Positions 20,428 through 55,688 of a stretch of DNA of 64,000 bases are shown here, one piece after another. The notes under the pieces were generated by a model that saw only the letters and a program-made list of their open reading frames with translations, was not told the DNA's origin and ran no database searches. A program made the position numbers and the translations under genes. The DNA lies in NCBI RefSeq assembly GCF_903944925.1, contig NZ_CAJATU010000183.1, positions 1 to 64,000 on the forward strand. The letters are read 5' to 3'. Numbering within the stretch: the stretch's first letter is position 1; each line of letters begins with the position of its first letter. The stretch comes from an uncultured Rhodopila sp. GTDB lineage: Bacteria; Pseudomonadota; Alphaproteobacteria; Acetobacterales; Acetobacteraceae.

Positions 20428-22281
20428 TCAGCGTTTGAGGCTCAGGATGGTGGGCACGATCGGGTCCAGGGCGACGGTGAACTGCTGCACCTGCCGGGCC
20501 GGGCCCGGAAAGCGCAGGTCCTCGACCGTAGCGGGCGCCTCCAGCCGCACCTCGATTTGCCCCGGCGCCTGCCACGGCGCAGCCGCCTGCAGCGCCAGGA
20601 TCGTCTGATCGCCGTGGCGCAACCAGCGCGCCTCGACCCCGGTGGCTGGCAAGCCGTCCGGTCCGCGCAGCTCCGCGCGGGGCGACACCCCCGCATCGCG
20701 CAACAGCGCCGCAAGGCCCGCCAATCCACCCGGGCCGTCGGGGCCGCCGCTCAGCAGCATGGCCTCCGGCAGCAGGGCGACCCCGGTCAACGGCGGAGCG
20801 GGCAGCTTGCGGCTATGCTGGTCGAACAAGCCGGGTTCGGTATCCGCCAGCACCCTGCCGCCGCGCCCGGCGAACGCGCGGATTTCGCTGACCTCGGCGG
20901 CGGACAGGGCGATGGCGTGCGGCAGGATCAGCACGTGCAGCCCGTCGCGCTGCAGGGCCCCGGCCTCGACCATGGCGGAGGACAGCAGGCGCGGCTGCAC
21001 GGCAAGTCCCGCCAGGCGATCGAGCACCTGCCGGCGCGACGCGCGCCAGGTATTGTCCTCATACTCCCGGGCGGCATCCCGGCTGGTCCAGGCGGCGCCC
21101 TTGGGCCGTTGGTCCAACATCCAGCGGGTGCGAAAGCTGGCCTGGGAATACAGCACCGCAACCGGATCGGGGGACGCTTCGGCCGCCATGATCGCCGGCG
21201 CCACCTGCCGCAGGGAGGCCACCAGCCCGGCAATCTCGTTGCCGCGCGGTGCAGCCGAACCGTCCGGCTGCACGACGTCGTCGCGCTCATCCCAGACGAT
21301 CAGTCCGCGGCCGCCGTGCAGCAGGTTGCGCCAGAGTCCGTGTGCCTCGCGCGGGCCGCTCGGAAAGCTGGTGCGCAACGTGATCAGGGCGGGATTGAAG
21401 GCGCGGGCAAGATCCAGCGCGCTGTCGAAGTCGTAGATCTCCATGACATCGACCGCTTGCGCCAACAGGCTGTAGTCGTAGCCCCCCCACCCCGGGATCT
21501 GTCCCCCCTCCAGCCCGGCCAGGGCCGTCGCATCGGCCCGGTGCACGGCATCCGTACCGGCACGCACGGCGCGGGCGAAGGCAATGTCCATCCAGGCCTT
21601 GAAGTCCGCCCAGGCGGAGTAGTTGTCGTCCGTCCGCCGCATCGCCGCGTCGGTCAGCTCCGGCACGACCGCATCCCAATCGGCGAAGGCCGTGCCCCAT
21701 TGGCGGTTCAGGGCGCCGATATCGGCGTACTGCGTCTTCAGCCACTGCCGCATCGCGGTCAGCGAGGACGGTGCGATGTCCGCGTCCCAAGCGGCGGCCA
21801 GGTCGCCGATACCGGATTCGTCGGCCAGATTGTAGAACAGCGGGTGGTAGCGGGATTGGTCACGCACCACCTGCTCCAGGCGCCCCTGGACCGCGGCCAG
21901 CCAGTCCGGGTCCGACAGGCCCGGTTCGCGCACGAATACGCCGGTGTCGGCGGGGTCCGCCCGCAGATGCGCCTTGGCGGCGTCAAACCGCCAGGTCACT
22001 GCCTTGCCTTGGGTATAGCGGTGGTAGGGGGCGTAGAAGTCGGTGGCGATGTTCTCCAGGTACCAGGGCAGGCCGGATGCCTGCTTGTCGGCCAGGATCG
22101 ACGGGCCGATATGGCCGCTGGTGGCACTCAACTTGGTGGCGGTGAAACCCAGCCGTGCCAGGCCCGCGATCTGGGTGGGCGTGCGGTCCTGCCACATGAT
22201 GAGCTGGAATTCGTCGAATGGTGGGGCCGTTGCCGAACCGGTGAGCAGCGCCAGGAGAAAGATTGAGACCAGCGCTCGCAT
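20428..22281 (-). CDS. Secreted glycoside-hydrolase-like protein (GH42-type architecture)
   Basis: This 617-residue protein has a signal peptide at residues 1-19 (LVSIFLLALLTGSATA). The barrel part includes YHPLFYNLADESGIGDLAA, where the Glu fits the acid/base position of clan GH-A enzymes. A later LEGGQIPGWGGYDYSLL could hold the nucleophile. The region around 390-520 (HVLILPHAIALSAAEVSEIR, then GRGGRVLADTEPG) looks like the class-I glutamine-amidotransferase-like trimerisation domain of beta-galactosidases, followed by a small beta domain. The substrate is unknown, and the activity needs testing because the match to classic GH42 is weak outside these motifs. Confidence 0.6.
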   Translation of the reverse strand: MRALVSIFLLALLTGSATAPPFDEFQLIMWQDRTPTQIAGLARLGFTATKLSATSGHIGPSILADKQASGLPWYLENIATDFYAPYHRYTQGKAVTWRFDAAKAHLRADPADTGVFVREPGLSDPDWLAAVQGRLEQVVRDQSRYHPLFYNLADESGIGDLAAAWDADIAPSSLTAMRQWLKTQYADIGALNRQWGTAFADWDAVVPELTDAAMRRTDDNYSAWADFKAWMDIAFARAVRAGTDAVHRADATALAGLEGGQIPGWGGYDYSLLAQAVDVMEIYDFDSALDLARAFNPALITLRTSFPSGPREAHGLWRNLLHGGRGLIVWDERDDVVQPDGSAAPRGNEIAGLVASLRQVAPAIMAAEASPDPVAVLYSQASFRTRWMLDQRPKGAAWTSRDAAREYEDNTWRASRRQVLDRLAGLAVQPRLLSSAMVEAGALQRDGLHVLILPHAIALSAAEVSEIRAFAGRGGRVLADTEPGLFDQHSRKLPAPPLTGVALLPEAMLLSGGPDGPGGLAGLAALLRDAGVSPRAELRGPDGLPATGVEARWLRHGDQTILALQAAAPWQAPGQIEVRLEAPATVEDLRFPGPARQVQQFTVALDPIVPTILSLKR

Positions 22282-22406
22282 ATCAGCCCCGTCGGCGCCG
22301 CTGCGGCGCGCTTTCCGGGAAGCGTTTAGCGGATTGGGCCGATCATTGCGAGGTGCAACTGGACGGGCTGGGACGGGAGTGGCGGTCGACGGGTTTGGTC
22401 CGGTAA

Positions 22407-22441
22407 GTCGTGGGTGGCCGGACTAAATCCGGCCATGACAC
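22407..22441. repeat. Palindromic repeat
   Basis: GGTGGCCGGACTAAATCCGGCCATGACAC at the right end repeats, inverted, the core of the copy at 11789-11821. A related imperfect copy follows at about 22508-22537 (GTCATAGCCCGGCTTGTCC). No gene is visible in 22282-22544. Confidence 0.8.
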
Positions 22442-22544
22442 AAGGACAACGGTCCCACGCGGTGGCATGATGCCAACGGCGAATGAGGACAACTCTTTGC
22501 TTAAACGTCATAGCCCGGCTTGTCCTCGCCACGACGTGAGCGCG

Positions 22545-23768
22545 TCAGGCCGGCCTGGCAAGACCGTAAAGCCCGACATTGATCGTCCCGGCACGGAACC
22601 CGCCCTCGCAATAGGCCAAATAGTAATCCCACATGCGGCGGAAGCGATGATCAAATCCCTGAAGCTCGATCTCCGGCCAAGCGGCGAGGAAACGGCGGCG
22701 CCATTCCGCCAGGGTGCGCGCGTAGCTGTCGCCAAATGTTTCCATCGACCGCAGCACCAGCCCGGCCCGTTCGGTCTGGCGGCGGATTTCCGTGATCGTC
22801 GGCAGCATGCCGCCGGGAAAGATGTAGTGCTGGATGAAATCGGTGCAGCGGCGGTAGCCCTCGAACTGGTCTTCGTCGATCGTGATGGCCTGCACCACCG
22901 CCAGCCCGCCGGGCTTGAGGCGGTCGTGCAACGCCGAGAAATAGCTCGGCCAATAGGCCTCGCCGACAGCCTCCATCATCTCGATGGAGACGATCCGGTC
23001 GAACGTCCCGCCGACATCGCGGTAGTCCTGCAGCCGTAAATCGGCTGGCGTGTCCGGCCCGTTCAGACGCCGCGTCGCATAGGCCAGTTGCGCGGCCGAC
23101 AGGGTCACCCCGGTCACCCGGCATCCGGCGGCGCGCACCAGTTGCTCCGCCAGCCCGCCCCAGCCGCAGCCGATTTCCAGCACCGCGTCGCCGGGGCGCG
23201 TGTCCAGCAGCGCGATGGCGCGGCGCTGCTTTTCAGTCTGCGCGTCCTCCAGCGTCTGCTCGTCCGCGGTGAACAGCGCGGAGGAGTAGCTCATGCCGCT
23301 GTCCAGCCAGGCGGCGTAAAAGTCGTTGCCGAGATCGTAGTGATGCCGGATGTTGCGCTTGCTGCCCCGCCTGGTGTTGGCGTTCAGGCGGTGCAGGACC
23401 CGGTTGCGCAGCCGGTGGAACCAGTTGGCGTCGAAGGCGTCCCGCAAGGTCGGGATGTTCCGCCCCGCCAGTTCGACCAGCGCCGGCAGGTCGGGGCTGT
23501 CCCAGTCGCCGTCGATAAAGGCCTCGGCGAAGGCGATGTCGCCTTGCAGCAGCAGCCGCCGCAAGGTCCGCCAGCGGCGCAGCACCAGCACGCCCTGCGG
23601 CCCGTCGTCGCGCCCGTGCGACAGCCGGAAGCCCGACGGTGTGACGATCGTCAGCCGCCCGTCATGGATGCGGGACAGCAGCACGTCCGACAGCCGGCGC
23701 GCCAGCCAGCCGAGATCGGGGCGCAGGTCGGAGCAAGCCGGGAGGGCATCGATCGACAGGTCGGTCAT
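22545..23768 (-). CDS. cfa: Cyclopropane-fatty-acyl-phospholipid synthase family methyltransferase
   Basis: This 407-residue SAM-dependent enzyme acts on unsaturated acyl chains of membrane phospholipids. The N-terminal lipid-binding part has FAEAFIDGDWDSPDLPALV. The catalytic part has NIRHHYDLGNDFYAAWLD, SAM loop VLEIGCGWGGLAEQL, and IVSIEMMEAVGEAYW. The C-terminal YYLAYCEGGFRAGTI keeps the conserved cysteine of Cfa. The start was set at 23768 (MTDLSIDALP), because upstream residues overlap the DUF1365 gene in another frame. It is the last gene of the oxidoreductase-DUF1365-cfa operon. UfaM-type furan fatty acid methylases are relatives, so it may methylate rather than cyclopropanate. Confidence 0.9.
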   Translation of the reverse strand: MTDLSIDALPACSDLRPDLGWLARRLSDVLLSRIHDGRLTIVTPSGFRLSHGRDDGPQGVLVLRRWRTLRRLLLQGDIAFAEAFIDGDWDSPDLPALVELAGRNIPTLRDAFDANWFHRLRNRVLHRLNANTRRGSKRNIRHHYDLGNDFYAAWLDSGMSYSSALFTADEQTLEDAQTEKQRRAIALLDTRPGDAVLEIGCGWGGLAEQLVRAAGCRVTGVTLSAAQLAYATRRLNGPDTPADLRLQDYRDVGGTFDRIVSIEMMEAVGEAYWPSYFSALHDRLKPGGLAVVQAITIDEDQFEGYRRCTDFIQHYIFPGGMLPTITEIRRQTERAGLVLRSMETFGDSYARTLAEWRRRFLAAWPEIELQGFDHRFRRMWDYYLAYCEGGFRAGTINVGLYGLARPA

Positions 23769-23770
23769 GG

Positions 23771-24538
23771 TCAGCCTTGCAGGATAGAAACGACAGTAAC
23801 GGGATTGTCCGGCGGCGCCGGGCGCGGCTGGACCCGCAGGCCCTTCAGCCAGAGCTTTGCCGCCTCCCAATGAATTGCGCCGAGCACCTTGAGGCTCAGG
23901 ATCCCGTGCCGCAGCACGATGCCGGCCAGCGCGGCATCCGACAGCCTGGTCCGGCGCCCGACGAACGAGGCGGTGATAACGCGTCCCTCGGCATCGTCGC
24001 CATGCACCACTACCGCGGTGGTCTCGGCGGGAGGCACGACGCGGAACGCGTAGGTCATCGCCATGCCGTTGAACGGGGAGACGTAGAACGCCTTGTCGCA
24101 GCCCTGCCGGAGGGTCTTCGCCGCGGGGTCATCGACCGGGATCAGGTAGCTGTGGCGGCCGCCGAAGGTGTTGTGCACCTCATACAGCATGGCGGACAGG
24201 ACGCCGTCGCGCCGGTAGCAGAAGAACACCGTAATCGGATTGAACACATGCCCCAGCACCCGCGGCATGCACAGAAAGCGGATCGGCCCGCCATCCGGCT
24301 GCAGCCCGGCCGCCGCCATCGCCGCCTCGACCTGTCCGCGCAGGTTGCCGACAGAGCCGTCCAGATGGTCGCGGTCGTCGAAGCTGATCAGGTTGAACCG
24401 GTTGTGCGAGAACAGCCGCAATCGCGTTGGCAGATCGTCCAGGTCGAACAGCATCCAGCACAGCCGGTAGCGCAACGCATGCCGCCGCGGCTTGTAGCGC
24501 TGGTGCATGACCGTGCCGGAGTACAGCGCAGAGGTCAC
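23771..24538 (-). CDS. DUF1365 family protein
   Basis: This 255-residue protein has motifs ALYSGTVMHQRYKPRRHALR near the start, LCMPRVLGHVFNPITVFFCY in the middle and EVHNTFGGRHSYLIP. This family is consistently found between an FAD amine-oxidase-like gene and a cfa-like gene in proteobacteria, as here, and is linked to modified fatty acid formation; its chemistry is not established. A GTG at 24538 is used because it overlaps the upstream stop as GTGA, giving translational coupling, and fits the family N-terminus. Confidence 0.88.
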   Translation of the reverse strand: MTSALYSGTVMHQRYKPRRHALRYRLCWMLFDLDDLPTRLRLFSHNRFNLISFDDRDHLDGSVGNLRGQVEAAMAAAGLQPDGGPIRFLCMPRVLGHVFNPITVFFCYRRDGVLSAMLYEVHNTFGGRHSYLIPVDDPAAKTLRQGCDKAFYVSPFNGMAMTYAFRVVPPAETTAVVVHGDDAEGRVITASFVGRRTRLSDAALAGIVLRHGILSLKVLGAIHWEAAKLWLKGLRVQPRPAPPDNPVTVVSILQG

Positions 24539-25851
24539 GCCGCCAGCTCCGCCTGCATCACGCGGATGCGGCCGCTTTCGTCCGCCACCGTCCACGGTCG
24601 CCTCACGCCGCCGAGCTGCTCCGCCACCGCCAGGCCCGCTTGCAAGCCGTCCTCATGGAAGCCGGAGCCGAACCAGGCGCCGCAGAACCAGGTGCGCTGG
24701 CGGCCCTGCAACGACCACAGCGCCTCCTGCGCCCGCATGGCGCCCGCGTCGAACAGCGGGTGTTCGTAGACCTGTTCGAGATGAACGCTTTCCGGCAACG
24801 GTTCCATCGCGGGATTGAGAGTTACGAATAAAGGTAGAGCGTTCCCCAAATCTTGAAGACGATTCATCCAGTAGGTCACGTGCAGTTCATCGGCCTCATC
24901 GCTTTTGCCGATATAGTTCCAGCTCGACCACACAGCCTTGCGCTTCGGCATCAGGCGCGGGTCGCCGTGCAGCACGGCCCGGTTGCTGGTGTATTGGAAG
25001 GCCCCAAGCAGCGTGGCTTCCGGGTCCGTCGGCTGCTCCAGCAGCGCCAAGGCGTTGTCCGCGTGGCAGGCCAGCACGACGTGGTCGAAAGTGCGCGACT
25101 CACCGGCGGAATCCCGAACCACCACGGCGTCTGGCTGGCGGTGGATCGATTGCGCGGCGACCCCCAGCCTGGGGTCGTCGATCGCCTGCACCATGCGCTC
25201 GACATAGCTCCGGCTGCCGCCCGCGACGGTGCGCCAAATCGGTCGGTTGGTGAATTTCAGCAGCCCGTGGTTTTCGCAGAACCGGATGAAGTGGCGCGCC
25301 GGGTAGTCGCGCAGGGTGGCGGCGGAGGCGGACCAGATCGCGCCCGCCATCGGCAGCAGATGGTCCTGCTGGAACGCCTGGCCATAGCCGTTACTGTCCA
25401 GTAACTCGCCCAGCGACGTGCTGCCCGGCAGCCGATCGGCCAGGCCGGGGGCGTCGCGGTAGAAGCGGCGCAGGTCCCGGAGCATGGACCAGAAGCGCGG
25501 CCGGATCAGGTTTATCGGCTGGCCGAACAGCCCGCGCAAATCGTTGCCGCCGTATTCCAGCCGCCCGTCGTCGAGCGAAACGGCGAAGCTCATTTCCGAG
25601 GCGTTGGTGGCGACGCCGAGATGCGCGAACAGCGCCGTCAGGTTGGGATAGGTGAGCTCATTATAGACGATGAAGCCGGTATCGACGGGCGTCACGGTGT
25701 CGCCGAAGCGAACCTCCACCGTGTTGCTGTGGCCGCCGGGGCGCGGCGCGGACTCATATAAAGTGACCCGATGCCGCCGGCTGAGCAGCCAGGCGGCAGA
25801 GAGTCCGGAGATGCCGCTGCCGACGACGGCAATGTCCAAGGTTTGATCCAC
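24535..25851 (-). CDS. FAD-dependent oxidoreductase, amine-oxidase fold (COG2907 type)
   Basis: This protein of about 438 residues has an N-terminal dinucleotide fold (IAVVGSGISGLSAAWLLSRR) and PRPGGHSNTVEV. The C-terminal FAD contact is WFCGAWFGSGFHEDGLQAGL. Relatives act on fatty acyl chains, and UfaD of furan fatty acid synthesis is of this general kind, which suggests desaturation or isomerisation of a methylated chain; that is inference. Two starts are possible. The GTG at 25851 (VDQTLDIAVV) has GGGG upstream. The ATG at 25887 would be almost at the transcript 5' end of the sigma-type promoter (leaderless). The much longer open frame to 26079 runs through the promoter and is not used. 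Confidence 0.88.
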   Translation of the reverse strand: MDQTLDIAVVGSGISGLSAAWLLSRRHRVTLYESAPRPGGHSNTVEVRFGDTVTPVDTGFIVYNELTYPNLTALFAHLGVATNASEMSFAVSLDDGRLEYGGNDLRGLFGQPINLIRPRFWSMLRDLRRFYRDAPGLADRLPGSTSLGELLDSNGYGQAFQQDHLLPMAGAIWSASAATLRDYPARHFIRFCENHGLLKFTNRPIWRTVAGGSRSYVERMVQAIDDPRLGVAAQSIHRQPDAVVVRDSAGESRTFDHVVLACHADNALALLEQPTDPEATLLGAFQYTSNRAVLHGDPRLMPKRKAVWSSWNYIGKSDEADELHVTYWMNRLQDLGNALPLFVTLNPAMEPLPESVHLEQVYEHPLFDAGAMRAQEALWSLQGRQRTWFCGAWFGSGFHEDGLQAGLAVAEQLGGVRRPWTVADESGRIRVMQAELAA

Positions 25852-25892
25852 CGTGACGCCCCGAAAATGATTGTTGGTTACAATCATAGAAG

Positions 25893-25921
25893 TGATACGT
25901 GCGACGCAAGGGGGTGGATCA
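25893..25921 (-). promoter_or_regulatory. RpoE-type (ECF11-like) promoter for oxidoreductase operon
   Basis: On the minus strand, TGATCC (25921-25916) is followed by exactly 18 nt and TATCA (25897-25893). It resembles the TGATCC-N18-TAAGA pattern reported for the Rhodobacter RpoE regulon, with a weaker -10. Directly downstream, 25867-25887 is a perfect 8-5-8 inverted repeat (ATGATTGT / ACAATCAT). Confidence 0.7.
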
Positions 25922-25935
25922 CCCGATTTAGCACG

Positions 25936-25964
25936 TGATCCATCCGCAAATGAATCACGTAAGA
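25936..25964 (+). promoter_or_regulatory. RpoE-type (ECF11-like) autoregulatory promoter for rpoE-chrR
   Basis: TGATCC (25936-25941), 18 nt, TAAGA (25960-25964) is an exact match to the -35/-10 pattern reported for singlet-oxygen-responsive RpoE in Rhodobacter. It lies about 120 nt before the preferred sigma start, consistent with autoregulation. Confidence 0.85.
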
Positions 25965-26087
25965 GGTTCCGTGAATGCAACCGCGCCCGCTTCCGGAGCT
26001 TCGGACACCCGTCTTGCGCCTGCCCTGCCGGGTGGCGGAGCGGCGGGGCTGGTGCTGCCGTTCCGCCGCCGTATATCAACGGCAGGC

Positions 26088-26651
26088 ATGACTTCGGACA
26101 CTCCGGCTTCGGACGACCACGCGGCGCTGATCCAGGCGATCGCGCAACGGCGCGATCGTCGCGCCTTCGCGGCGCTGTTCCGTTTCTTCGCCCCGCGGGT
26201 GAAGGCCTGGATGCTGCGCGGCGGCGCCAGTCCGGTCACGGCCGAGGAACTGGCGCAGGAGACGATGCTGACGGTCTGGCAGAAGGCCGCTTTGTTCGAT
26301 CCGGCCCGGGCGGGGGCCTCCACCTGGATTTTCACGATTGCCCGCAACCAGCGGATTGATTCGCTCCGCCGCGAACGCCACCCCGCCACTCTGCTGCCCG
26401 ATCCGGCCGAGGAGCCGGAGGGGCCGGTTCAGGCCGATCGCGTGATGGCGATGGCGGAGCAGGAGTCGCGCATCCGCGCGGCGATGGCGGACTTGCCGGC
26501 CGAACAGGCCGACGTGATTCGCAAGGCGTTCTTTGAAGACAAGGTGCATGCCGAGATCGAGAAGGAACTCGGGATTCCTTTGGGCACCGTGAAGTCGCGG
26601 CTGCGGCTGGCGATGAACCGCCTGCGCGCCGCCCTGGGGGATGTGACATGA
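26088..26651 (+). CDS. rpoE: ECF sigma factor, RpoE/ECF11-like
   Basis: This 187-residue RNA polymerase sigma factor has region 2 at FAALFRFFAPRVKAWMLRGG through STWIFTIARNQRIDSLRRE, and region 4 at VIRKAFFEDKVHAEIEKELG and IPLGTVKSRLRLAMNRLRAA. It should read TGATCC/TAAGA promoters such as the two in the divergent region beside it. The ATG at 26088 gives a family-typical length. The frame is open upstream, and a GTG at 25971 would sit right at the predicted transcription start, so a longer protein is possible. It overlaps chrR by four bases, which fits a sigma/anti-sigma pair held by translational coupling. Confidence 0.93.
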   Translation: MTSDTPASDDHAALIQAIAQRRDRRAFAALFRFFAPRVKAWMLRGGASPVTAEELAQETMLTVWQKAALFDPARAGASTWIFTIARNQRIDSLRRERHPATLLPDPAEEPEGPVQADRVMAMAEQESRIRAAMADLPAEQADVIRKAFFEDKVHAEIEKELGIPLGTVKSRLRLAMNRLRAALGDVT

Positions 26652-27259
26652 TCGCGCATCACCCGAGCGAGACGACCTTGCTCGCCTATGCCGCCGGGAC
26701 CTTGCCGGAGGCACTGGCGATCGTCGCGGCGACGCATATCGGCGGATGCCACCTGTGCCGGCACCGGCTGGAGGCGCTGGAGGCCGTCGGTGGCGTCCTG
26801 CTGGACTCGCTGCCGCCGGCCGCGCTGTCCGACGATGCATTGGATCGCCTGCTGGCGCGGGCGGACGAAGCCGCCCCGGCGCCGCCGCCGGTGCTGAACG
26901 CCGGCTTGCCGCCGCCGCTGGATCGCGTGCCGCTCGGCCGCTGGTGGCCCATCGGCCTTGGCGCGCGCTGGCGGCCGTTGCAGGCGGAGGGCGCGGCCTG
27001 GGGCGGGCTGGTACTGGTGCAGCCCGGACGGGCGCTGCCGCGCCACGGGCATGACGGGCTGGAACTGACCTGCGTGCTGAAGGGCGCATTCTCCGACGGC
27101 TCCGGCCGGTACGGGCCGGGCGACCTGTCGGAACCGCAGGATGATCACGACCTGCCGCCGGTGGCCGAGCTCGGCGAGCCATGCCTGTGCGTCATCGCTT
27201 CGGAGGGCATGCGGCTGCGCGGACTGCTCGGCTGGGGCCAGCGGATGATCGGATTATGA
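26648..27259 (+). CDS. chrR: Zinc-binding anti-sigma factor with cupin domain, ChrR-like
   Basis: This 203-residue protein would hold RpoE inactive until singlet oxygen or organic peroxide is present. The N-terminal zinc anti-sigma domain shows H5, H30, C34 and C37 (in HHPSE and THIGGCHLC), matching ChrR H6/H31/C35/C38 with a one-residue offset. The C-terminal cupin has LPRHGHDGLELTCVLKGAFS with the metal-binding His/His/Glu set. Start overlaps rpoE as ATGA. The esterase gene follows after 7 bases, so the operon continues. Confidence 0.93.
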   Translation: MIAHHPSETTLLAYAAGTLPEALAIVAATHIGGCHLCRHRLEALEAVGGVLLDSLPPAALSDDALDRLLARADEAAPAPPPVLNAGLPPPLDRVPLGRWWPIGLGARWRPLQAEGAAWGGLVLVQPGRALPRHGHDGLELTCVLKGAFSDGSGRYGPGDLSEPQDDHDLPPVAELGEPCLCVIASEGMRLRGLLGWGQRMIGL

Positions 27260-27266
27260 GGCAGGG

Positions 27267-28232
27267 ATGGCGCATGGCTGGTTGGGGGTGGCGATGCTGA
27301 CGGTGCTGTCGGCCTGTTCTCCGATAACGGTGCTCAATACGCTGGCGCCGCGCCAGGGCATCAGCGAAATCCACGATGTGCCTTATGCCACGGGCGAGCG
27401 GCACGGGCTGGACATCTATGCGCCCGCGGACGCGGCGGGCGCCCCGGTCGTGGTGTTCATCTATGGCGGCGGCTGGAAGGACGGCGACAAGGCGAGGTAT
27501 CGCTTTGCCGGCGCGGCCCTGGCGGGACGCGGCTTCGTCACCGTGGTGCCGGACTACCGGGTGTTCCCGGTCGTGCGCTTCCCGGTTTTCATCCAGGATG
27601 CCGCGGCCGCGGTGGCATGGACCATGGCGAACATTGCCCGATACGGCGGCGACCCGCGGCGCGTTTTCCTGATGGGCCACTCGGCCGGGGCGCAGATCGC
27701 CGCGATGCTGACCCTGGATCGCCGGTGGCTGGGCGCCGAGGGGCTGGACCCGGACCGCGACATCGCCGGTTTCGCCGGGCTGGCCGGGCCGTATGACTTC
27801 CTGCCGCTGCATGACCCGGAACTGGACGATATTTTCGCTCCGGCCGGCGATCTGCGGCTGACCCAGCCGATCAGCTTCGCCCGCGGCGATGCGCCGCCGG
27901 TGTTCCTGGCCGCGGGAACGGCTGACACCACGGTGCTGCCGCGGAACACGGTGAACCTCGCCGCCGCCATCCGCCGCGACGGCGGCCGGGTGGAGGAAAA
28001 GCTGTATCCGGGGATCGGGCACAAGCTAATGCTGGGCGCGTTCGCCGCGGTGCTGCGCTGGCGGGTGCCGGTGCTGGATGACGTGACCGGGTTTCTGGAT
28101 CGGATTGCGGGGCGGCCCGTCATGGCCGGCGCAGGCCGGCCATCCACGCCTTTCCGCCGGCGAACACCGCAAGGCGTGGATGGCGGGCCTGCGCCCGCCA
28201 TGACGGTCAGTACAGAGGGGCGTTCACCATGA
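27267..28232 (+). CDS. Alpha/beta hydrolase (esterase/lipase-like), probable lipoprotein
   Basis: This 321-residue hydrolase has an oxyanion motif in FIYGGGWKDGD, nucleophile FLMGHSAGAQIAA, an acid residue in AAGTADTTV and His in PGIGHKLM. The N-terminus MLTVLSACSPIT contains a lipobox (LSAC), so it is probably anchored in a membrane. The last about 45 residues (from RPVMAGAGRPSTPFRRRT) are encoded by the palindromic repeat at 28118-28205, so the original protein likely ended near residue 285. The extended end overlaps the DUF1295 start as ATGA. As part of the sigma operon it may release or edit acyl chains; that role is inference. Confidence 0.85.
   Translation: MAHGWLGVAMLTVLSACSPITVLNTLAPRQGISEIHDVPYATGERHGLDIYAPADAAGAPVVVFIYGGGWKDGDKARYRFAGAALAGRGFVTVVPDYRVFPVVRFPVFIQDAAAAVAWTMANIARYGGDPRRVFLMGHSAGAQIAAMLTLDRRWLGAEGLDPDRDIAGFAGLAGPYDFLPLHDPELDDIFAPAGDLRLTQPISFARGDAPPVFLAAGTADTTVLPRNTVNLAAAIRRDGGRVEEKLYPGIGHKLMLGAFAAVLRWRVPVLDDVTGFLDRIAGRPVMAGAGRPSTPFRRRTPQGVDGGPAPAMTVSTEGRSP
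28118..28205. repeat. Palindromic repeat forming the 3' end of a gene
   Basis: The repeat reads CGTCATGGCCGGCGCAGGCC..CCATCCACGCCTT in the left half, with GGCGTGGATGG..GCCCGCCATGACG in the right half. It shares the CCATCCACGCCTT block with copies at 30063 and 54111. The reading frame of the esterase passes through it without a stop. Confidence 0.85.
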
Positions 28233-29029
28233 TCATCACTTTCATCGCCGCTACCATCCTGCTCTCCGCGATCATGGCGGGGGCCTGGGCGTTGCAGCGC
28301 GCCACCGGCAATTCCGGCTGGGTGGACGTGGTCTGGTCGTTCGGACTCGGCATTGCCGGGCTGGTCCTGGCGCTGGTGCCGGGGATCGAATCCCCATCCA
28401 CCCGCCAGATCGTCGTTGCCGTGCTGATCGCGCTGTGGTCGATCCGCCTCGGCCTCTATATCGCGCAGCGCTCGACGCACGGGCCCGAGGACGCGCGCTA
28501 TGCCGCGCTGCGCCGGGAATGGGGACCGCAGTTCGAGCAGCGGCTGTTTGTCTTCCTGCAAATCCAGGCCGCCGCCGCGGCCCTGCTCGGCCTGTCGATG
28601 CTGTTGGCGGCGCATAATCCTGCGCCCTGGCCGAGAGGCCTGGATTTCGCCGGCATCGCCGTGCTGATCATTGCCGTCGCGGGAGAGGGCATCGCCGACG
28701 AGCAATTGCGCCGCTTCAAGGCCGATCCCGCCAACAAGGGCCGGGTCTGCGACGCGGGGCTGTGGGGATGGTCGCGGCATCCAAACTACTTCTTCGAGTG
28801 GCTCGGCTGGGTCGCCTATCCGCTGCTGGCGATCGACCTGTCCGGCGGCTGGTACTGGGGCTGGCTGGCCGTCTCCGGCCCGGCCTTCATGTACTGGCTG
28901 CTGGTCTACGTTTCCGGCATCCCGATGCTGGAGCAGCAGATGCTGCAATCGCGCGGCGCCGCCTATACGGCCTACCAGGCCCGGGTCAGCGCTTTCTTCC
29001 CGCTTCCGCCTAAAGGATCGCCGACATGA
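28229..29029 (+). CDS. DUF1295 membrane protein
   Basis: This 266-residue integral membrane protein has about six hydrophobic segments. The C-terminal CDAGLWGWSRHPNYFFEWLG is the signature of the DUF1295/steroid 5-alpha-reductase-like and ICMT-like fold, where the RHPNYF region binds a nucleotide or SAM cofactor. Relatives co-occur with cfa-type genes in lipid-modifying clusters and are candidate membrane reductases or methyltransferases. It overlaps both neighbours by four bases, so it is fully embedded in the rpoE operon. Confidence 0.88.
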   Translation: MIITFIAATILLSAIMAGAWALQRATGNSGWVDVVWSFGLGIAGLVLALVPGIESPSTRQIVVAVLIALWSIRLGLYIAQRSTHGPEDARYAALRREWGPQFEQRLFVFLQIQAAAAALLGLSMLLAAHNPAPWPRGLDFAGIAVLIIAVAGEGIADEQLRRFKADPANKGRVCDAGLWGWSRHPNYFFEWLGWVAYPLLAIDLSGGWYWGWLAVSGPAFMYWLLVYVSGIPMLEQQMLQSRGAAYTAYQARVSAFFPLPPKGSPT

Positions 29030-30051
29030 GTCTCGTCACCGCCGCCACCACCGTCATCGAGCGCATGCCGATACCGGATGCCGTCACCTCGGCCGGGATC
29101 GCGTTCCTGGTGGACCGCACCCGCCGCAAATTGGCCCGCGCGGGCGGCGGGTCGGACGTGGATTTCGCCCGCCTGATGGCCGAGCACCCGATCGCCGTGC
29201 GGCCGGATGCGGCGAACGAGCAGCATTATGAAGTGGCGCCGGCGTTCTTCGGCCTGGCGCTCGGCCCGCGCCGCAAATACTCCTGCTGCCTGTACCGCTC
29301 GGACAGCGACACCCTGGCCATGGCTGAGGAGTACGCGCTGGCGGAAACCGCGGTGCATGCCGGGCTGGCCGACGGGCAGGATGTGCTGGAACTCGGCTGC
29401 GGCTGGGGTTCGCTCAGCCTGTGGATGGCCGAGCGGTATCCGGCGTCGCGCATCACCGCAGTGTCGAATTCCCGCCCGCAGCGCGAATACATCGAAGGCG
29501 AGGCGGCGAAACGCGGGGTCGCCAACCTGCGGGTGATCACCGCCGACATGAACGACTTCGCCGCCCCGGGGACCTTCGACCGGATCGTGTCCGTGGAGAT
29601 GTTCGAGCACATGACCAACTGGCAGTCACTGCTGCGCCGGATCCATGGCTGGCTGCGCCCGGACGGGCGGCTGTTCCTGCACGTGTTCAGCCACCGCTCG
29701 GCGCCGTATCTGTTCGACACCGCCGACAAGGAGGACTGGATCGCCCAGCATTTCTTTACCGGCGGCATCATGCCGAGCCACGGCCTGATCCGGCACGTCG
29801 CGGACGTGTTCGAACTGGAGTCGGACTGGCGCTGGAACGGCACCCACTACGCCCGCACCGCGCGCGATTGGCTGGCCAATTTCGACCGCGAGCAGGATGC
29901 GGTGATGGACGTGCTGCGCGGGGTCTATGGCGCGGACGCAGCGCTGTGGAAGCGTCGCTGGCGGCTGTTCTTCCTGGCGACGGCGGGGCTGTTCGGGCAT
30001 GCCGGCGGCGAGGAATGGGGCGTCAGCCATTACCGTCTACGGCCGATCTGA
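29026..30051 (+). CDS. SAM-dependent methyltransferase, cyclopropane-synthase-like (short form)
   Basis: This 341-residue class I methyltransferase is of the CFA/coclaurine N-methyltransferase-like type. Motifs are NEQHYEVAPAFFGLALGPRR, SAM loop VLELGCGWGSLSLWM, IVSVEMFEHMTNWQ and FTGGIMPSHGLIR. It lacks the long N-terminal lipid-binding part seen in the cfa gene at 22545-23768, so it may act on a soluble or different lipid substrate. It is the last gene of the rpoE-chrR transcript and overlaps DUF1295 by four bases. A palindromic repeat follows immediately and may end the transcript. Confidence 0.87.
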   Translation: MSLVTAATTVIERMPIPDAVTSAGIAFLVDRTRRKLARAGGGSDVDFARLMAEHPIAVRPDAANEQHYEVAPAFFGLALGPRRKYSCCLYRSDSDTLAMAEEYALAETAVHAGLADGQDVLELGCGWGSLSLWMAERYPASRITAVSNSRPQREYIEGEAAKRGVANLRVITADMNDFAAPGTFDRIVSVEMFEHMTNWQSLLRRIHGWLRPDGRLFLHVFSHRSAPYLFDTADKEDWIAQHFFTGGIMPSHGLIRHVADVFELESDWRWNGTHYARTARDWLANFDREQDAVMDVLRGVYGADAALWKRRWRLFFLATAGLFGHAGGEEWGVSHYRLRPI

Positions 30052-30062
30052 ACGGTGTTTTC

Positions 30063-30152
30063 CCGTCATGGTGCGCGCAGGCGCACCATCCACGCCTTGC
30101 GGCGCCGGTTCAGGCGAAGGCGTGGATGGCCGGCTTCCGCCCGCAATGACGG
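30063..30152. repeat. Palindromic repeat
   Basis: The repeat opens CCGTCATGGTGCGCGCAGGC, contains CACCATCCACGCCTTGCGG in the left half, and has GGCGTGGATGGCCGG and CAATGACGG in the right half. It begins 12 bases after the methyltransferase stop. Confidence 0.85.
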
Positions 30153-30239
30153 AACCCGGCGATGATGGTGCGACTTCGATCCGAACACATCGTGATCGGA
30201 GGCCGTGAACAGGGTTGAGCAACCGGCGTTGAGACGCGG

Positions 30240-31526
30240 ATGCACTATCTTCGTTCACCGGACGCCGCCGGACTATCCTGTCGCGTAAGCCTGAATGCCC
30301 GGGCGGCGGCGGCCGACCCGCCGCGGCAGGGACGGGGCGGCAAACTCGCCGAACTGGACGGGCTGCGGGGGGTTGCCTCGCTGGTCGTCGTGGCCTGGCA
30401 CTTCGTCTATGCCTTCCTGCCGCAATATATCGGCATCGTTCCGGACTTCGATCCGGCTGCGGGGCTGGTGGGCTCTCCGGCCTTCGCCCTGCTCAACGGG
30501 CCGGGCGCTGTGATGTTGTTTTTCGTGCTGTCCGGCTACGTGCTGCCGCTGGGATATTTCCGCTCCGGGCGAACCGAGGTGGTGCTGCGGGCGGTGGCGA
30601 AGCGCTGGTTCCGGCTGGGGTGCCTGACGCTGCTCGCTGCGCTCGGGTCGTATCTGTTGTTCCGGTTTGGCTGGTACTATTTCCGCGAGGCGGCGGGGTT
30701 GACGGAATCCGCCTGGCTGGGCAGCTTCGGCGGCGGCGATGTGAACGGGCAGTTGCAGCCATCGCTGTTGAGCGCCGTGCTGGAGGGGTCGGTTTTCGCC
30801 TTCATCCGCCCCGCCGATGCCTACAACCCGGTGTTCTGGACGATGCGCGACGAGTTGTTCGGCAGCGTATTGGTGTTCGCGCTGGCCCCGCTGCTCTGGC
30901 GGTGTCGCGCGCTGGCGGGTGCCGCGCTGCTGGTGCTGGCCGCGGCAGCGGTGCAGTGCGTGGACCCGCGGCTGGCGGCGTTCGTCGCGGGGCTGGCTTT
31001 GTCCCGCGCGAATGCAAGCGGGCGGCTATCGGTGAACCGTTTCTTGGCGCCGGTATGCCTTGTGTCGGGGCTGGCTTTGTTCGGCTACCTGGAGCCTCGA
31101 GGGGCCTATGCCTGGCTTGGCTTCCTGCCGGATGGATCGCAGTGGCGGTATGACCGGATGTGGCTGCATATACTGGGCGGAGTGCTGCTGATCCTGGGCG
31201 TTTTGGGCAGCGAGCGCGCAGGGTCGCTGCTGGCCTCCGGCGCGGGACGCTTCCTGGGGCGGCTGTCGTTCCCGGTCTATCTGTTCCACTTCCCGCTGCT
31301 GTGCTCGTTGACCTGCTGGCTGTTCCTGGCGGTGCGGCCGTCGTTGGGACAGGATGCGGCCGTGGCGGTGGCGGCGCTGGCGACTTTGCCGGCGCTGCTG
31401 GCGGTCGGCTATGCCTTCGCCCGGGTTGACGAACTATGGGTGGCGCGGCTCAACCGGATGGCCCGTAGGGCGATCGCGGTTCCGAACCGATTCAGTATCG
31501 TTCACGCGAATGCGGAGGGGACGTAG
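30240..31526 (+). CDS. Acyltransferase 3 family membrane protein (OafA/YrhL type)
   Basis: This 428-residue polytopic protein has about ten membrane helices. The family signature is at the N-terminal side: KLAELDGLRGVASLVVVAWH with the catalytic-type His, then VMLFFVLSGYVL. A later FLGRLSFPVYLFHFPLL is also typical. Such proteins O-acetylate surface sugars or peptidoglycan. The substrate is not evident and no glycan genes adjoin it. The 3' end overlaps the FAD monooxygenase gene by 25 bases, tail to tail. Confidence 0.88.
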   Translation: MHYLRSPDAAGLSCRVSLNARAAAADPPRQGRGGKLAELDGLRGVASLVVVAWHFVYAFLPQYIGIVPDFDPAAGLVGSPAFALLNGPGAVMLFFVLSGYVLPLGYFRSGRTEVVLRAVAKRWFRLGCLTLLAALGSYLLFRFGWYYFREAAGLTESAWLGSFGGGDVNGQLQPSLLSAVLEGSVFAFIRPADAYNPVFWTMRDELFGSVLVFALAPLLWRCRALAGAALLVLAAAAVQCVDPRLAAFVAGLALSRANASGRLSVNRFLAPVCLVSGLALFGYLEPRGAYAWLGFLPDGSQWRYDRMWLHILGGVLLILGVLGSERAGSLLASGAGRFLGRLSFPVYLFHFPLLCSLTCWLFLAVRPSLGQDAAVAVAALATLPALLAVGYAFARVDELWVARLNRMARRAIAVPNRFSIVHANAEGT

Positions 31527-32855: not shown

Positions 32856-32914
32856 TGTGAAGGGACACCAACCTGTCCCGGGCATTCACGACTTACTGCG
32901 CTCGTCGGGGGAAA

Positions 32915-32951
32915 GTCGTGGATGGCCGGACTAAATCCGGCGCCATGACAC
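32915..32951. repeat. Palindromic repeat
   Basis: GTCGTGGATGGCCGGACTAA followed by ATCCGGCGCCATGACAC is nearly identical to the copy at 22407-22441, apart from a two-base insertion in the right arm. It lies 41 bases beyond the histidine kinase stop. Confidence 0.8.
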
Positions 32952-54887: not shown

Positions 54888-55688
54888 GCTTGTCTCCTTT
54901 GCCATGGGCGAGCAGCACAATCGGAGTGAAACCGGCCAAATGCGACAATTTCTACTTGTGTATGTCTTTCATTGGACACGCTCCGGTTGATTGCGCGTGC
55001 AGGGTGTATTGTTTGGATAAAATCCACTCTACTCTTAGGCGAAATTACCAACGCACGAGCCAATATTTTTATCATCTGCAACATGTTTAAAGTTGAAACA
55101 GCTTTAGACCAACCCGGCCTGATCATGCGTGCTGAATCAGCGGATATCAAGAACTTGTGATGTTGGTTGTGAATTGCCTCAGACAGTTACACCGGACGGA
55201 TCGACAGGCGGCAGGTTAGGTCGATATAACAACCGTATCGTATACAATATGTTATTTGGTTGCTGAGTTTTCCTTCCGGCTCGTAAATCCCTACCAAATT
55301 TGCGATCCCGGCATCGAGCGACGATTGGCTTTCGATATGATAGACGCACTTGTTATGGTTTAATGACAAATTTGCTCCGATTTCGTGATTTGAATCGCCA
55401 CACAGAACCTCCCCGTCAAGAACCTCACTGCCCTTGATACCATTCACGCAAGAAGTGTTGACCACCTGAACATCACCGTCTCGACGGCCGTTTTGTCGCC
55501 AATCCCGTGCGATTCGGGGTCACCGGCGATCGGCTCGCCGAATGCCGGACCCGGGTGCCGGACACAAGCGCCTGCGTCGGCGACCGCCGTCATGTTGATA
55601 CGATCTTGACGCAAACTTGCTCGCAATCCCTGGTAACCGCGGCCGGACGTATGCGTAGTTTGCGCCGTAAGATTGAACAGGTGCGTGC
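54888..55688. other. AT-rich intergenic patch
   Basis: This 800-nt region is much less GC-rich than the surroundings, especially 54890-55470, suggesting acquired DNA. The only open frame of note is on the minus strand at 55187-55465, described separately. A GTG near 55689 begins the next gene. No tRNA, IS end or repeat was recognised. Confidence 0.6.
55187..55465 (-). CDS. Possible small cysteine-containing protein
   Basis: This frame of about 92 codons has a GTG start and six cysteines (for example NTSCVNGIKG, GEVLCGDSNHE, ITYCIRYGCYIDLTC). Base use is much more AT-rich than neighbouring genes. The frame is open about 16 codons further upstream without a better start, so this may be the tail of a truncated secreted protein. 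There is no recognisable family and no clear ribosome site. It may not be a gene. Confidence 0.3.
   Translation of the reverse strand: MVNTSCVNGIKGSEVLDGEVLCGDSNHEIGANLSLNHNKCVYHIESQSSLDAGIANLVGIYEPEGKLSNQITYCIRYGCYIDLTCRLSIRPV

What the first reader, a model, noticed from the sequence alone, without database searches (positions are those of the whole stretch)
25893..25964. Divergent pair of TGATCC-N18 promoters between an rpoE-chrR operon and a lipid-modification operon
Both strands carry TGATCC with exactly 18 nt before a -10-like element: TAAGA on the plus strand (perfect) and TATCA on the minus strand. The plus promoter serves the ECF sigma factor itself and the minus one serves the FAD oxidoreductase-DUF1365-cfa operon. 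Their -35 boxes face each other 14 bp apart. This gives a self-contained singlet-oxygen switch with its lipid-modifying targets wired on both sides.
Basis: partly seen in the sequence, partly recalled or inferred. Interest (0 to 1): 0.72.

Follow-up and report, generated by a model that had tools for sequence, protein, structure and literature searches.

The report
Two-way singlet-oxygen sigma promoter pair
A purple bacterium carries a back-to-back pair of promoters that most likely switch on both a light-damage alarm (a sigma factor with its inhibitor) and a set of membrane-lipid-modifying genes; this wiring is already known from related bacteria, but the start codon of the alarm gene appears to sit right where its RNA begins, a pattern shared by many relatives that may be a new detail.

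Summary
TGATCC-N18-TAAGA (+, 25936-25964) and TGATCC-N18-TATCA (-, 25921-25893) lie back to back, -35 boxes 14 bp apart; both fit the published ECF11 sigma-E motif TGATCC-N16-CGTA equally well. They separate rpoE-chrR (followed by a hydrolase, DUF1295 and a CMAS methyltransferase) from a FAD oxidoreductase-DUF1365-CMAS operon that matches the furan-fatty-acid set ufaD-ufaO-ufaM. Both promoters are kept in 18 of 18 fetched same-genus loci with this gene order (window included). A blind pattern search found the pair in 14 of 385 alphaproteobacterial genomes, 11 of them exactly between ufaD and rpoE. The genome encodes photosynthetic reaction-centre proteins. Rhodobacter sphaeroides is published with the same neighbouring operons, each with an RpoE promoter, so this is a new member of a known kind. 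One addition may be new: an in-frame ATG/GTG lies 5-8 nt after the rpoE -10 in 44 of 71 promoters outside the genus; ufaD (nine close loci) and a lipocalin gene show the like. This predicts leaderless sigma-E-dependent mRNAs and a longer sigma factor. There are no transcription data; function is inferred.

The parts
25936..25964 (+). sigma-E (ECF11) promoter of rpoE-chrR: TGATCC-N16-CGTA-AGA
   Evidence: matches published consensus
25893..25921 (-). sigma-E (ECF11) promoter of the ufaD-ufaO-ufaM operon: TGATCC-N16-CGTA-TCA
   Evidence: matches published consensus
25922..25935 (.). 14-bp spacer between the two -35 boxes; 9-14 bp in 15 of 18 genus loci (27, 200 and 264 in the others), 12-111 bp in 28 loci outside the genus, so not a fixed length
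25971..26651 (+). rpoE (ECF11 sigma-E); predicted start GTG 25971 at the predicted +1 (leaderless, 226 aa); the later start ATG 26088 is the alternative
26648..27259 (+). chrR zinc anti-sigma factor; its ATG overlaps the rpoE stop
   Evidence: TIGR02451 over cutoff, Cupin_7, Zn ligands
27267..28232 (+). alpha/beta hydrolase (BD-FAE/esterase-like), 7 nt after chrR, probably same operon
28229..29029 (+). DUF1295 protein, overlaps the preceding gene
29026..30051 (+). CMAS-family methyltransferase (about 30% identical to the ufaM product in the window); candidate FufM-like enzyme, inferred
24535..25887 (-). ufaD-like FAD oxidoreductase; ATG 25887 lies 5 nt after the -10 pentamer (predicted leaderless); alternative start GTG 25851
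23771..24538 (-). ufaO-like DUF1365 protein; start GTG 24538, overlapping the ufaD stop, is my choice
22545..23768 (-). ufaM-like CMAS methyltransferase ('cfa'); start ATG 23768 is my choice

Best explanation
This is the autoregulated ECF11 (sigma-E/ChrR) singlet-oxygen response module of a purple bacterium close to Rhodopila. ChrR holds sigma-E inactive until singlet oxygen or organic peroxide leads to ChrR loss (known in R. sphaeroides, inferred here). Free sigma-E then fires both back-to-back promoters. To the right it makes more sigma-E and ChrR from overlapping genes, plus a hydrolase, a DUF1295 protein and a second CMAS methyltransferase. To the left it makes the furan-fatty-acid enzymes UfaD, UfaO and UfaM; the R. 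sphaeroides counterparts of the first two promote ChrR turnover, closing a positive loop. Shown here: motif, gene order, conservation, domain content, reaction-centre genes. Inferred: transcription, signal, lipid products, co-transcription. Also predicted: the rpoE, ufaD and (elsewhere) lipocalin mRNAs begin at or within 1-2 nt of their start codons (leaderless), giving sigma-E a 39-residue N-terminal extension here.
For: Motif and geometry; published ECF11-type consensus TGATCC-N16-CGTA. Both promoters in 18 of 18 fetched same-genus ufaD/rpoE loci, and in two further same-genus loci read with short flanks (L052, L056). A blind pair search hit 14 of 385 class genomes; 11 of the 14, own included, lie between ufaD and rpoE-chrR. 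ChrR subfamily model over cutoff; all eight zinc ligands at matching positions. The best PDB match of RpoE is 2q1z/2z2s (that this is the R. sphaeroides sigma-E/ChrR complex is recalled). R. sphaeroides has the two operons side by side with RpoE promoters; UfaD/UfaO/UfaM functions. Two PF00124 reaction-centre genes over cutoff. Start codon at +1: 35 of 39 promoters in the first set, 21 of the 40 loci there being from the genus fetch and window; 44 of 71 in the class survey, 44 of 44 in frame, against 1.3 per offset at offsets 11-60; lipocalin ATG followed by a signal-peptide-like start at offset 5-6 in 6 of 30 loci read.
Against: No expression data for this organism. In 28 of 99 class loci with an rpoE hit no promoter of this form was found within 350 nt, and 27 of 71 promoters lack the +1 start codon. 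Named R. tropici (L116) has no such rpoE promoter within 420 nt, and Aminobacter (L118) none on the ufaD side. A paper on S. meliloti says all its leaderless mRNAs start with AUG and that non-AUG starts are inefficient (PMC3616915, passage), while the window's predicted start is GTG. The ufaD-side +1 ATG is limited to the 9 closest loci, and in 5 of those it opens a short separate frame rather than ufaD. My regular expression fixes positions 1-5 and CGT, so per-base conservation there is by construction. The reversed-pattern controls (0) contain CTAG, which is rare in such genomes (recalled), so they are not a fair null.
Confidence: 0.88

Rival explanations
1. The paired TGATCC boxes are an inverted-repeat operator (TGGATCAC-N12-GTGATCCA) for a dimeric repressor or activator, not two promoters.
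For: The two boxes form an 8-bp inverted repeat.
Against: The gap varies from 9 to 264 bp in the genus and 12 to 111 bp outside it, and each box keeps its own CGT(A) at N16. Three loci with rpoE but without a neighbouring ufaD keep only the plus promoter (L072, L076, L083).
Confidence: 0.03
2. Only the rpoE promoter is real and the minus-strand match is a chance site near a common hexamer.
For: TGATCC is frequent (55 in the window) and single full sites are near chance frequency in the genome. In 5 of 33 loci outside the genus with divergent ufaD and an rpoE promoter no minus promoter was found.
Against: The minus site is kept in 18 of 18 genus loci and 28 of 33 loci outside it; the R. sphaeroides operon has an RpoE promoter.
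Confidence: 0.04
3. In this organism rpoE is translated from ATG 26088, and the upstream in-frame codons are an untranslated leader that happens to lack stops.
For: The solved sigma-E chain aligns only from query residue 45; the first half of the extension is weakly constrained, and the three closest loci show 11 synonymous and 11 non-synonymous changes; the +1 codon here is GTG, reported as inefficient in leaderless mRNAs elsewhere; a purine-rich GGCAGG lies directly before ATG 26088, though closer than a usual Shine-Dalgarno (recalled).
Against: In-frame +1 start codons in 44 of 71 distant loci, 44 of 44 in frame; whole-codon indels, and 152 synonymous against 44 non-synonymous changes in the last 14 columns of nine loci (pairwise counts, not independent).
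Confidence: 0.25

Closest known systems
Rhodobacter sphaeroides rpoE-chrR and RSP_1091-1087 operons (ECF11 sigma-E/ChrR singlet-oxygen response)
   Same: Neighbouring operons, each with an RpoE promoter; first two target genes ufaD (RSP_1091) and ufaO (RSP_1090) (PMC3818230, PMC7380195, passages). Divergence is inferred from the locus order; the passages seen do not use the word
   Different: Here ufaM lies in the target operon (in R. sphaeroides it is RSP2144, elsewhere), and chrR is followed by hydrolase-DUF1295-CMAS; predicted leaderless rpoE
Mesorhizobium terrae plasmid cluster (NZ_CP044217.1, L117)
   Same: CMAS and FAD oxidoreductase on one strand; chrR, alpha/beta hydrolase, DUF1295 on the other (annotated); rpoE and both promoters found by my scan
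   Different: Photolyase next to it; about 39% ChrR identity; the minus box reads TGATCT
Pseudomonas syringae PSPTO_1043 and Shewanella RpoE2 regulons
   Same: Same -35/-10 motif, sigma-chrR pair with its own motif, targets include cfa/FAD/DUF-type homologues (PMC5507510, PMC4336711, passages)
   Different: The lipid genes sit in a separate photolyase-containing operon, judged from the tables and passages seen
Streptomyces coelicolor SigR/SigR' isoforms
   Same: An autoregulated promoter yields an N-terminally extended sigma factor controlled by a zinc anti-sigma factor (PMC4921905, passages)
   Different: Different ECF group (recalled); a second promoter gives the short form there; a sigma-70 consensus scan found no promoter in 22400-30300 here, and stability of the extended form is untested

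Membership tests
ECF11 sigma-E/ChrR pair | ECF sigma factor (regions 2 and 4) next to a ChrR-family zinc anti-sigma factor | tested here: met
   Sigma70_r2 and r4 over cutoff; TIGR02451 143.2 bits against cutoff 124.5. The equivalog NF051881 scored 159.6, below its cutoff of 300
ECF11 sigma-E/ChrR pair | ChrR zinc ligands: HHCC in the anti-sigma domain and HHEH in the cupin-like domain | tested here: met
   H5, H30, C34, C37 and H133, H135, E139, H167 against 6/31/35/38 and 141/143/147/177 in R. sphaeroides (legend seen)
ECF11 sigma-E/ChrR pair | Own promoter of the form TGATCC-N16-CGTA | tested here: met
   Sequence and conservation; consensus from passages
ECF11 sigma-E/ChrR pair | Activation by singlet oxygen or organic peroxide | not testable with these tools
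   Needs experiment; reaction-centre genes present
Furan-fatty-acid operon (ufaD-ufaO-ufaM) | FAD oxidoreductase, DUF1365 and CMAS methyltransferase encoded together | tested here: met
   Pfam hits over cutoff for all three; same order as the consecutive R. palustris tags RPA2571-2570-2569
Furan-fatty-acid operon (ufaD-ufaO-ufaM) | Orthology to the R. sphaeroides or R. palustris enzymes and furan product | not tested
   Reference sequences were not compared and no product data exist
FufM dimethyl-furan methylase (gene at 29026-30051) | Orthology to RPA0924 | not tested
   RPA0924 sequence not at hand; only the low identity to the ufaM product (about 30%) resembles the 26% reported for RPA0924 and R. 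sphaeroides UfaM
Leaderless mRNA | TSS coincides with the first base of the start codon | tested here: inconclusive
   Start codon 5-8 nt after the -10 pentamer; no mapped TSS

The most novel reading that the evidence does not exclude
In most Alphaproteobacteria that have an ECF11 promoter before rpoE, the stress-induced, sigma-E-driven rpoE mRNA is leaderless, so the sigma factor made during stress is translated without a Shine-Dalgarno sequence and may carry an N-terminal extension missed by annotation. In the Rhodopila group the rule extends to the regulon (rpoE, ufaD or its leader peptide, lipocalin), so promoter and start codon form one unit. The extension, or leaderless initiation itself, may tune the positive feedback loop, as the unstable SigR' isoform does in Streptomyces.
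Probability: 0.6. Interest if true: 0.52.

Novelty: new member of a known kind. Interest (0 to 1): 0.38.

Why it matters
The divergent layout places a membrane-damage alarm and lipid enzymes that feed back on it under one sigma factor in one 72-bp region, and its presence in several alphaproteobacterial families fits the view that the furan-fatty-acid feedback loop is at the core of the response. If rpoE is leaderless, annotated start codons of many ECF11 sigma factors may be wrong, the true protein may carry an extra N-terminal segment, and the stress response would depend on the leaderless translation route, which is easy to test.

Tried and rejected
Weighed and dropped: an operator-palindrome reading (variable spacing); a fixed helical phasing between the boxes (the gap of about 13 bp typical of the genus is not kept outside it); L085 as a further target (its TAAGA site lies against a frame that looks to me, by eye, like an antitoxin); the other single genome sites (no convincing gene start at the right distance; not studied further). 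L109 and L111 carry the pair but no ufaD/rpoE homologue beside it, and L107 has ufaD on one side only. Whether the second methyltransferase is FufM was left open for lack of the reference sequence. The genome-contig scan gave only 3 loci, which are the same contigs as three of the fetched loci by length. Dufour et al. 2008, the source of the core regulon, was not held under the DOI that I tried from memory and is known here only through the review PMC6852236 (abstract, sections 7, 15, 16 and passages). Literature on a leaderless rpoE: only; (leaderless + ChrR) returned one unrelated paper; of the 14 papers I saw the listing of 12 and passages of two (PMC3616915, PMC4921905). Subscription papers are not held, so absence from print is not shown. 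No structure prediction was run. On rechecking I raised the rival 'start at ATG 26088' from 0.20 to 0.25 because of the statement on non-AUG leaderless starts; the class-wide reading rests mostly on ATG (41 of 44) and keeps its odds.

Full report
Observation. On the plus strand TGATCC 25936-25941 is followed after 18 nt by TAAGA 25960-25964; on the minus strand TGATCC 25921-25916 is followed after 18 nt by TATCA 25897-25893; 14 bp separate the boxes. The literature describes the motif of this sigma group as TGATCC-N16-CGTA (P. syringae consensus, PMC5507510, passages; R. sphaeroides TGATCC-N15-GCGTA, PMC5036791, passage).

Chance. TGATCC itself is common (55 in the window). TGATCC-N16..20-TAWNW occurs twice in the window, only at this place (shuffle mean 0.39; 5 of 100 shuffles reach 2). 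In the whole genome there are 15 exact TGATCC-N16-CGTA sites, close to my own estimate of about 13 for ten fixed bases in 7 Mb on two strands, so a single site proves little. The divergent pair, with 20 fixed bases, is another matter: of 385 genomes of the class it was found in 14; 11 of those 14, the window included, lie exactly between a ufaD homologue and rpoE-chrR, one (L107) has ufaD on one side only, and two (L109, L111) lie elsewhere. The tool's reversed-pattern control read zero, but the reversed pattern contains CTAG, which I recall to be depleted in such genomes, so I do not lean on it.

Genes. Right of the pair: an ECF sigma factor (Sigma70 r2 and r4) and a ChrR anti-sigma factor (TIGR02451 over its cutoff; NF051881 below its cutoff), then an alpha/beta hydrolase, DUF1295 and a CMAS methyltransferase, with a 7-nt gap or overlaps. 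The eight zinc ligands listed for R. sphaeroides ChrR are present (H5, H30, C34, C37; H133, H135, E139, H167). Left of the pair: FAD amine-oxidase family, DUF1365 and CMAS. In R. sphaeroides and R. palustris such proteins are UfaD, UfaO and UfaM, the enzymes of methylated furan fatty acids (PMC7380195, passages); the three R. palustris genes bear consecutive tags, as the three lie together here. I did not align the window proteins with those references. The genome has two PF00124 reaction-centre genes over cutoff, so light-driven singlet oxygen is a plausible hazard. The nearest named record found with a close ChrR (85%) is an uncultured Rhodopila.

Conservation in the genus. ChrR matched in 27 of 33 same-genus genomes, own included. 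I fetched long stretches for 20 of the 26 others. In 14 of these 20 all eight genes are found in the stretch; three lack part of the set (L068 at a contig end, L073, L074) and three (L072, L076, L083) have no ufaD in the stretch. The 17 with ufaD opposite rpoE plus the window make 18, and 18 of 18 have both promoters (the expression allowed any sixth base and CGT plus any base; L071 has TGATCT on the plus side and L082 CGTT on both). Two of the six not fetched, read with short flanks, also have both (L052, L056); one (L057) has no ufaD in its stretch. The three loci without ufaD keep the rpoE promoter only. The spacing between boxes is 9-14 bp in 15 of 18, and 27, 200 and 264 bp in the rest.

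Conservation in the class. ChrR matched in 162 of 385 genomes. I took 116 loci from the stronger hits listed there (stretches); weaker, split and unlisted hits were left out. Of 116, 99 gave an rpoE hit and 17 did not; 71 of the 99 had a TGATC-N17-CGT site within 350 nt and 28 did not; 36 had a divergent ufaD, 33 of them with an rpoE promoter, of which 28 also had the minus-strand promoter, with gaps of 12-111 bp. These loci include those found by the pair search, so the two results overlap. The layout is widespread in the class.

Leaderless start at rpoE. In nine close loci the block RTGAATGCA right after the -10 is strongly conserved, and the start codon in it is in frame with rpoE without a stop. 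In the first set of 40 loci, 39 have a promoter and 35 of those have an in-frame, open ATG or GTG 5-7 nt after the -10 pentamer (exceptions L059, L102, L104, L110; L116 has no promoter). In the class survey 44 of 71 promoters have one at 5-8 nt; 41 are ATG and 3 GTG. Every ATG/GTG at these offsets is in the rpoE frame (44 of 44; a third would be expected), against a mean of 1.3 per offset for offsets 11-60 (65 in 50 offsets). The two sets share 11 places (eight locus ids, plus L099/L120, L105/L060 and L108/L058), so they are not independent. The other 27 of 71 have no such codon; several have a first in-frame start 19-35 nt on. With ECF promoter numbering as I recall it, the +1 base lies about 6-7 nt after the pentamer, so these codons sit at the RNA 5' end.

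The window's own start. Here the start would be GTG 25971, adding 39 residues before ATG 26088. In nine close loci the extension varies in length only by whole codons, and its last 14 columns show 152 synonymous against 44 non-synonymous single-base codon differences (pairwise, not independent); over the whole extension the counts are 249 to 181, and for the three closest loci 11 to 11, so the first half is weakly constrained. Against it, leaderless mRNAs of S. meliloti are all reported to begin with AUG, with non-AUG starts called inefficient (PMC3616915, passage).

Other start sites. On the ufaD side the nine closest loci have ATG exactly 5 nt after the pentamer: in four it opens ufaD itself, in five it opens a 16-19-codon frame that ends at or just past the ufaD start codon, which suggests translational coupling; the more distant loci lack it. 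A genus-wide search for the promoter followed by RTG 4-6 nt after the pentamer gave 59 matches in 25 of 33 genomes, with 1 in the reversed control. Of the 30 loci read from it, six (L228, L230, L233, L237, L246 and L247, the last in the own genome) start a lipocalin-like protein with a signal-peptide-like N-terminus directly at that ATG (Pfam was run only on a 60-residue piece of the own one, PF08212 at 24.3 bits against cutoff 24; the others by eye). That start codon is hard to doubt, which supports the reading that this sigma factor's promoters here produce leaderless mRNAs. Some other matches are probably chance (for example the short frames in L225, L239, L243, L245).

Comparison. R. sphaeroides has RSP_1091-1087 upstream of rpoE-chrR, each operon preceded by an RpoE promoter, with RSP_1091 and RSP_1090 needed for ChrR turnover (PMC3818230, passages), and the review PMC6852236 describes a conserved core regulon including rpoE-chrR and the furan genes (section 16). 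Named plasmid records show a similar neighbourhood in Shinella, Mesorhizobium and Aminobacter and a rearranged one in Rhizobium tropici; in these, R. tropici lacks the rpoE promoter within 420 nt and Aminobacter the ufaD one. The window is therefore a new example of a known system. The hydrolase-DUF1295-CMAS tail after chrR and the predicted leaderless start are the parts I did not see described in what I read; the search for the latter was small and I made none for the former. The extended sigma factor recalls SigR' of Streptomyces, where the autoregulated promoter gives an unstable longer form (PMC4921905, passages); whether the extension matters here is unknown.

Verdict. Observation confirmed, interpretation supported by comparison though untested by experiment, novelty modest; the leaderless rpoE pattern is the part worth following.

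Noticed in passing
28117-28206 and 30063-30152: Two copies of an approximately 90-nt imperfect palindrome (arms of 36 nt, 94% and 78% complementary, 18 nt between), one inside the 3' end of the hydrolase gene and one just after the CMAS gene; related pieces at 32883-32929 and, more weakly, 22402-22433. Looks like a dispersed repeat.
   Followed up: partly
L066-L070, upstream of ufaD: A 16-19-codon leader frame opening at the predicted +1 and ending at or just past the ufaD start codon; a possible translational-coupling leader peptide.
   Followed up: partly
L084 and L247 (own genome, contig C40 near 55363-55388): A further sigma-E-type promoter before a lipocalin-like gene, with counterparts in five other same-genus loci read.
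   Followed up: yes
L075 and L077 upstream of rpoE: In two loci the two promoters are 264 and 200 bp apart, so the tight back-to-back packing is not essential.
   Followed up: no
20428-22281 (-) and 30240-31526 (+): Flanking genes: a protein with a Pfam GH42 hit over cutoff on a short stretch and an acyltransferase 3 family protein; relation to the module unknown.
   Followed up: no
L111 (G075, contig C3 near 37965): The divergent pair also occurs between two genes with signal-peptide-like starts (by eye) about 8 kb from a chrR hit, possibly further targets.
   Followed up: no
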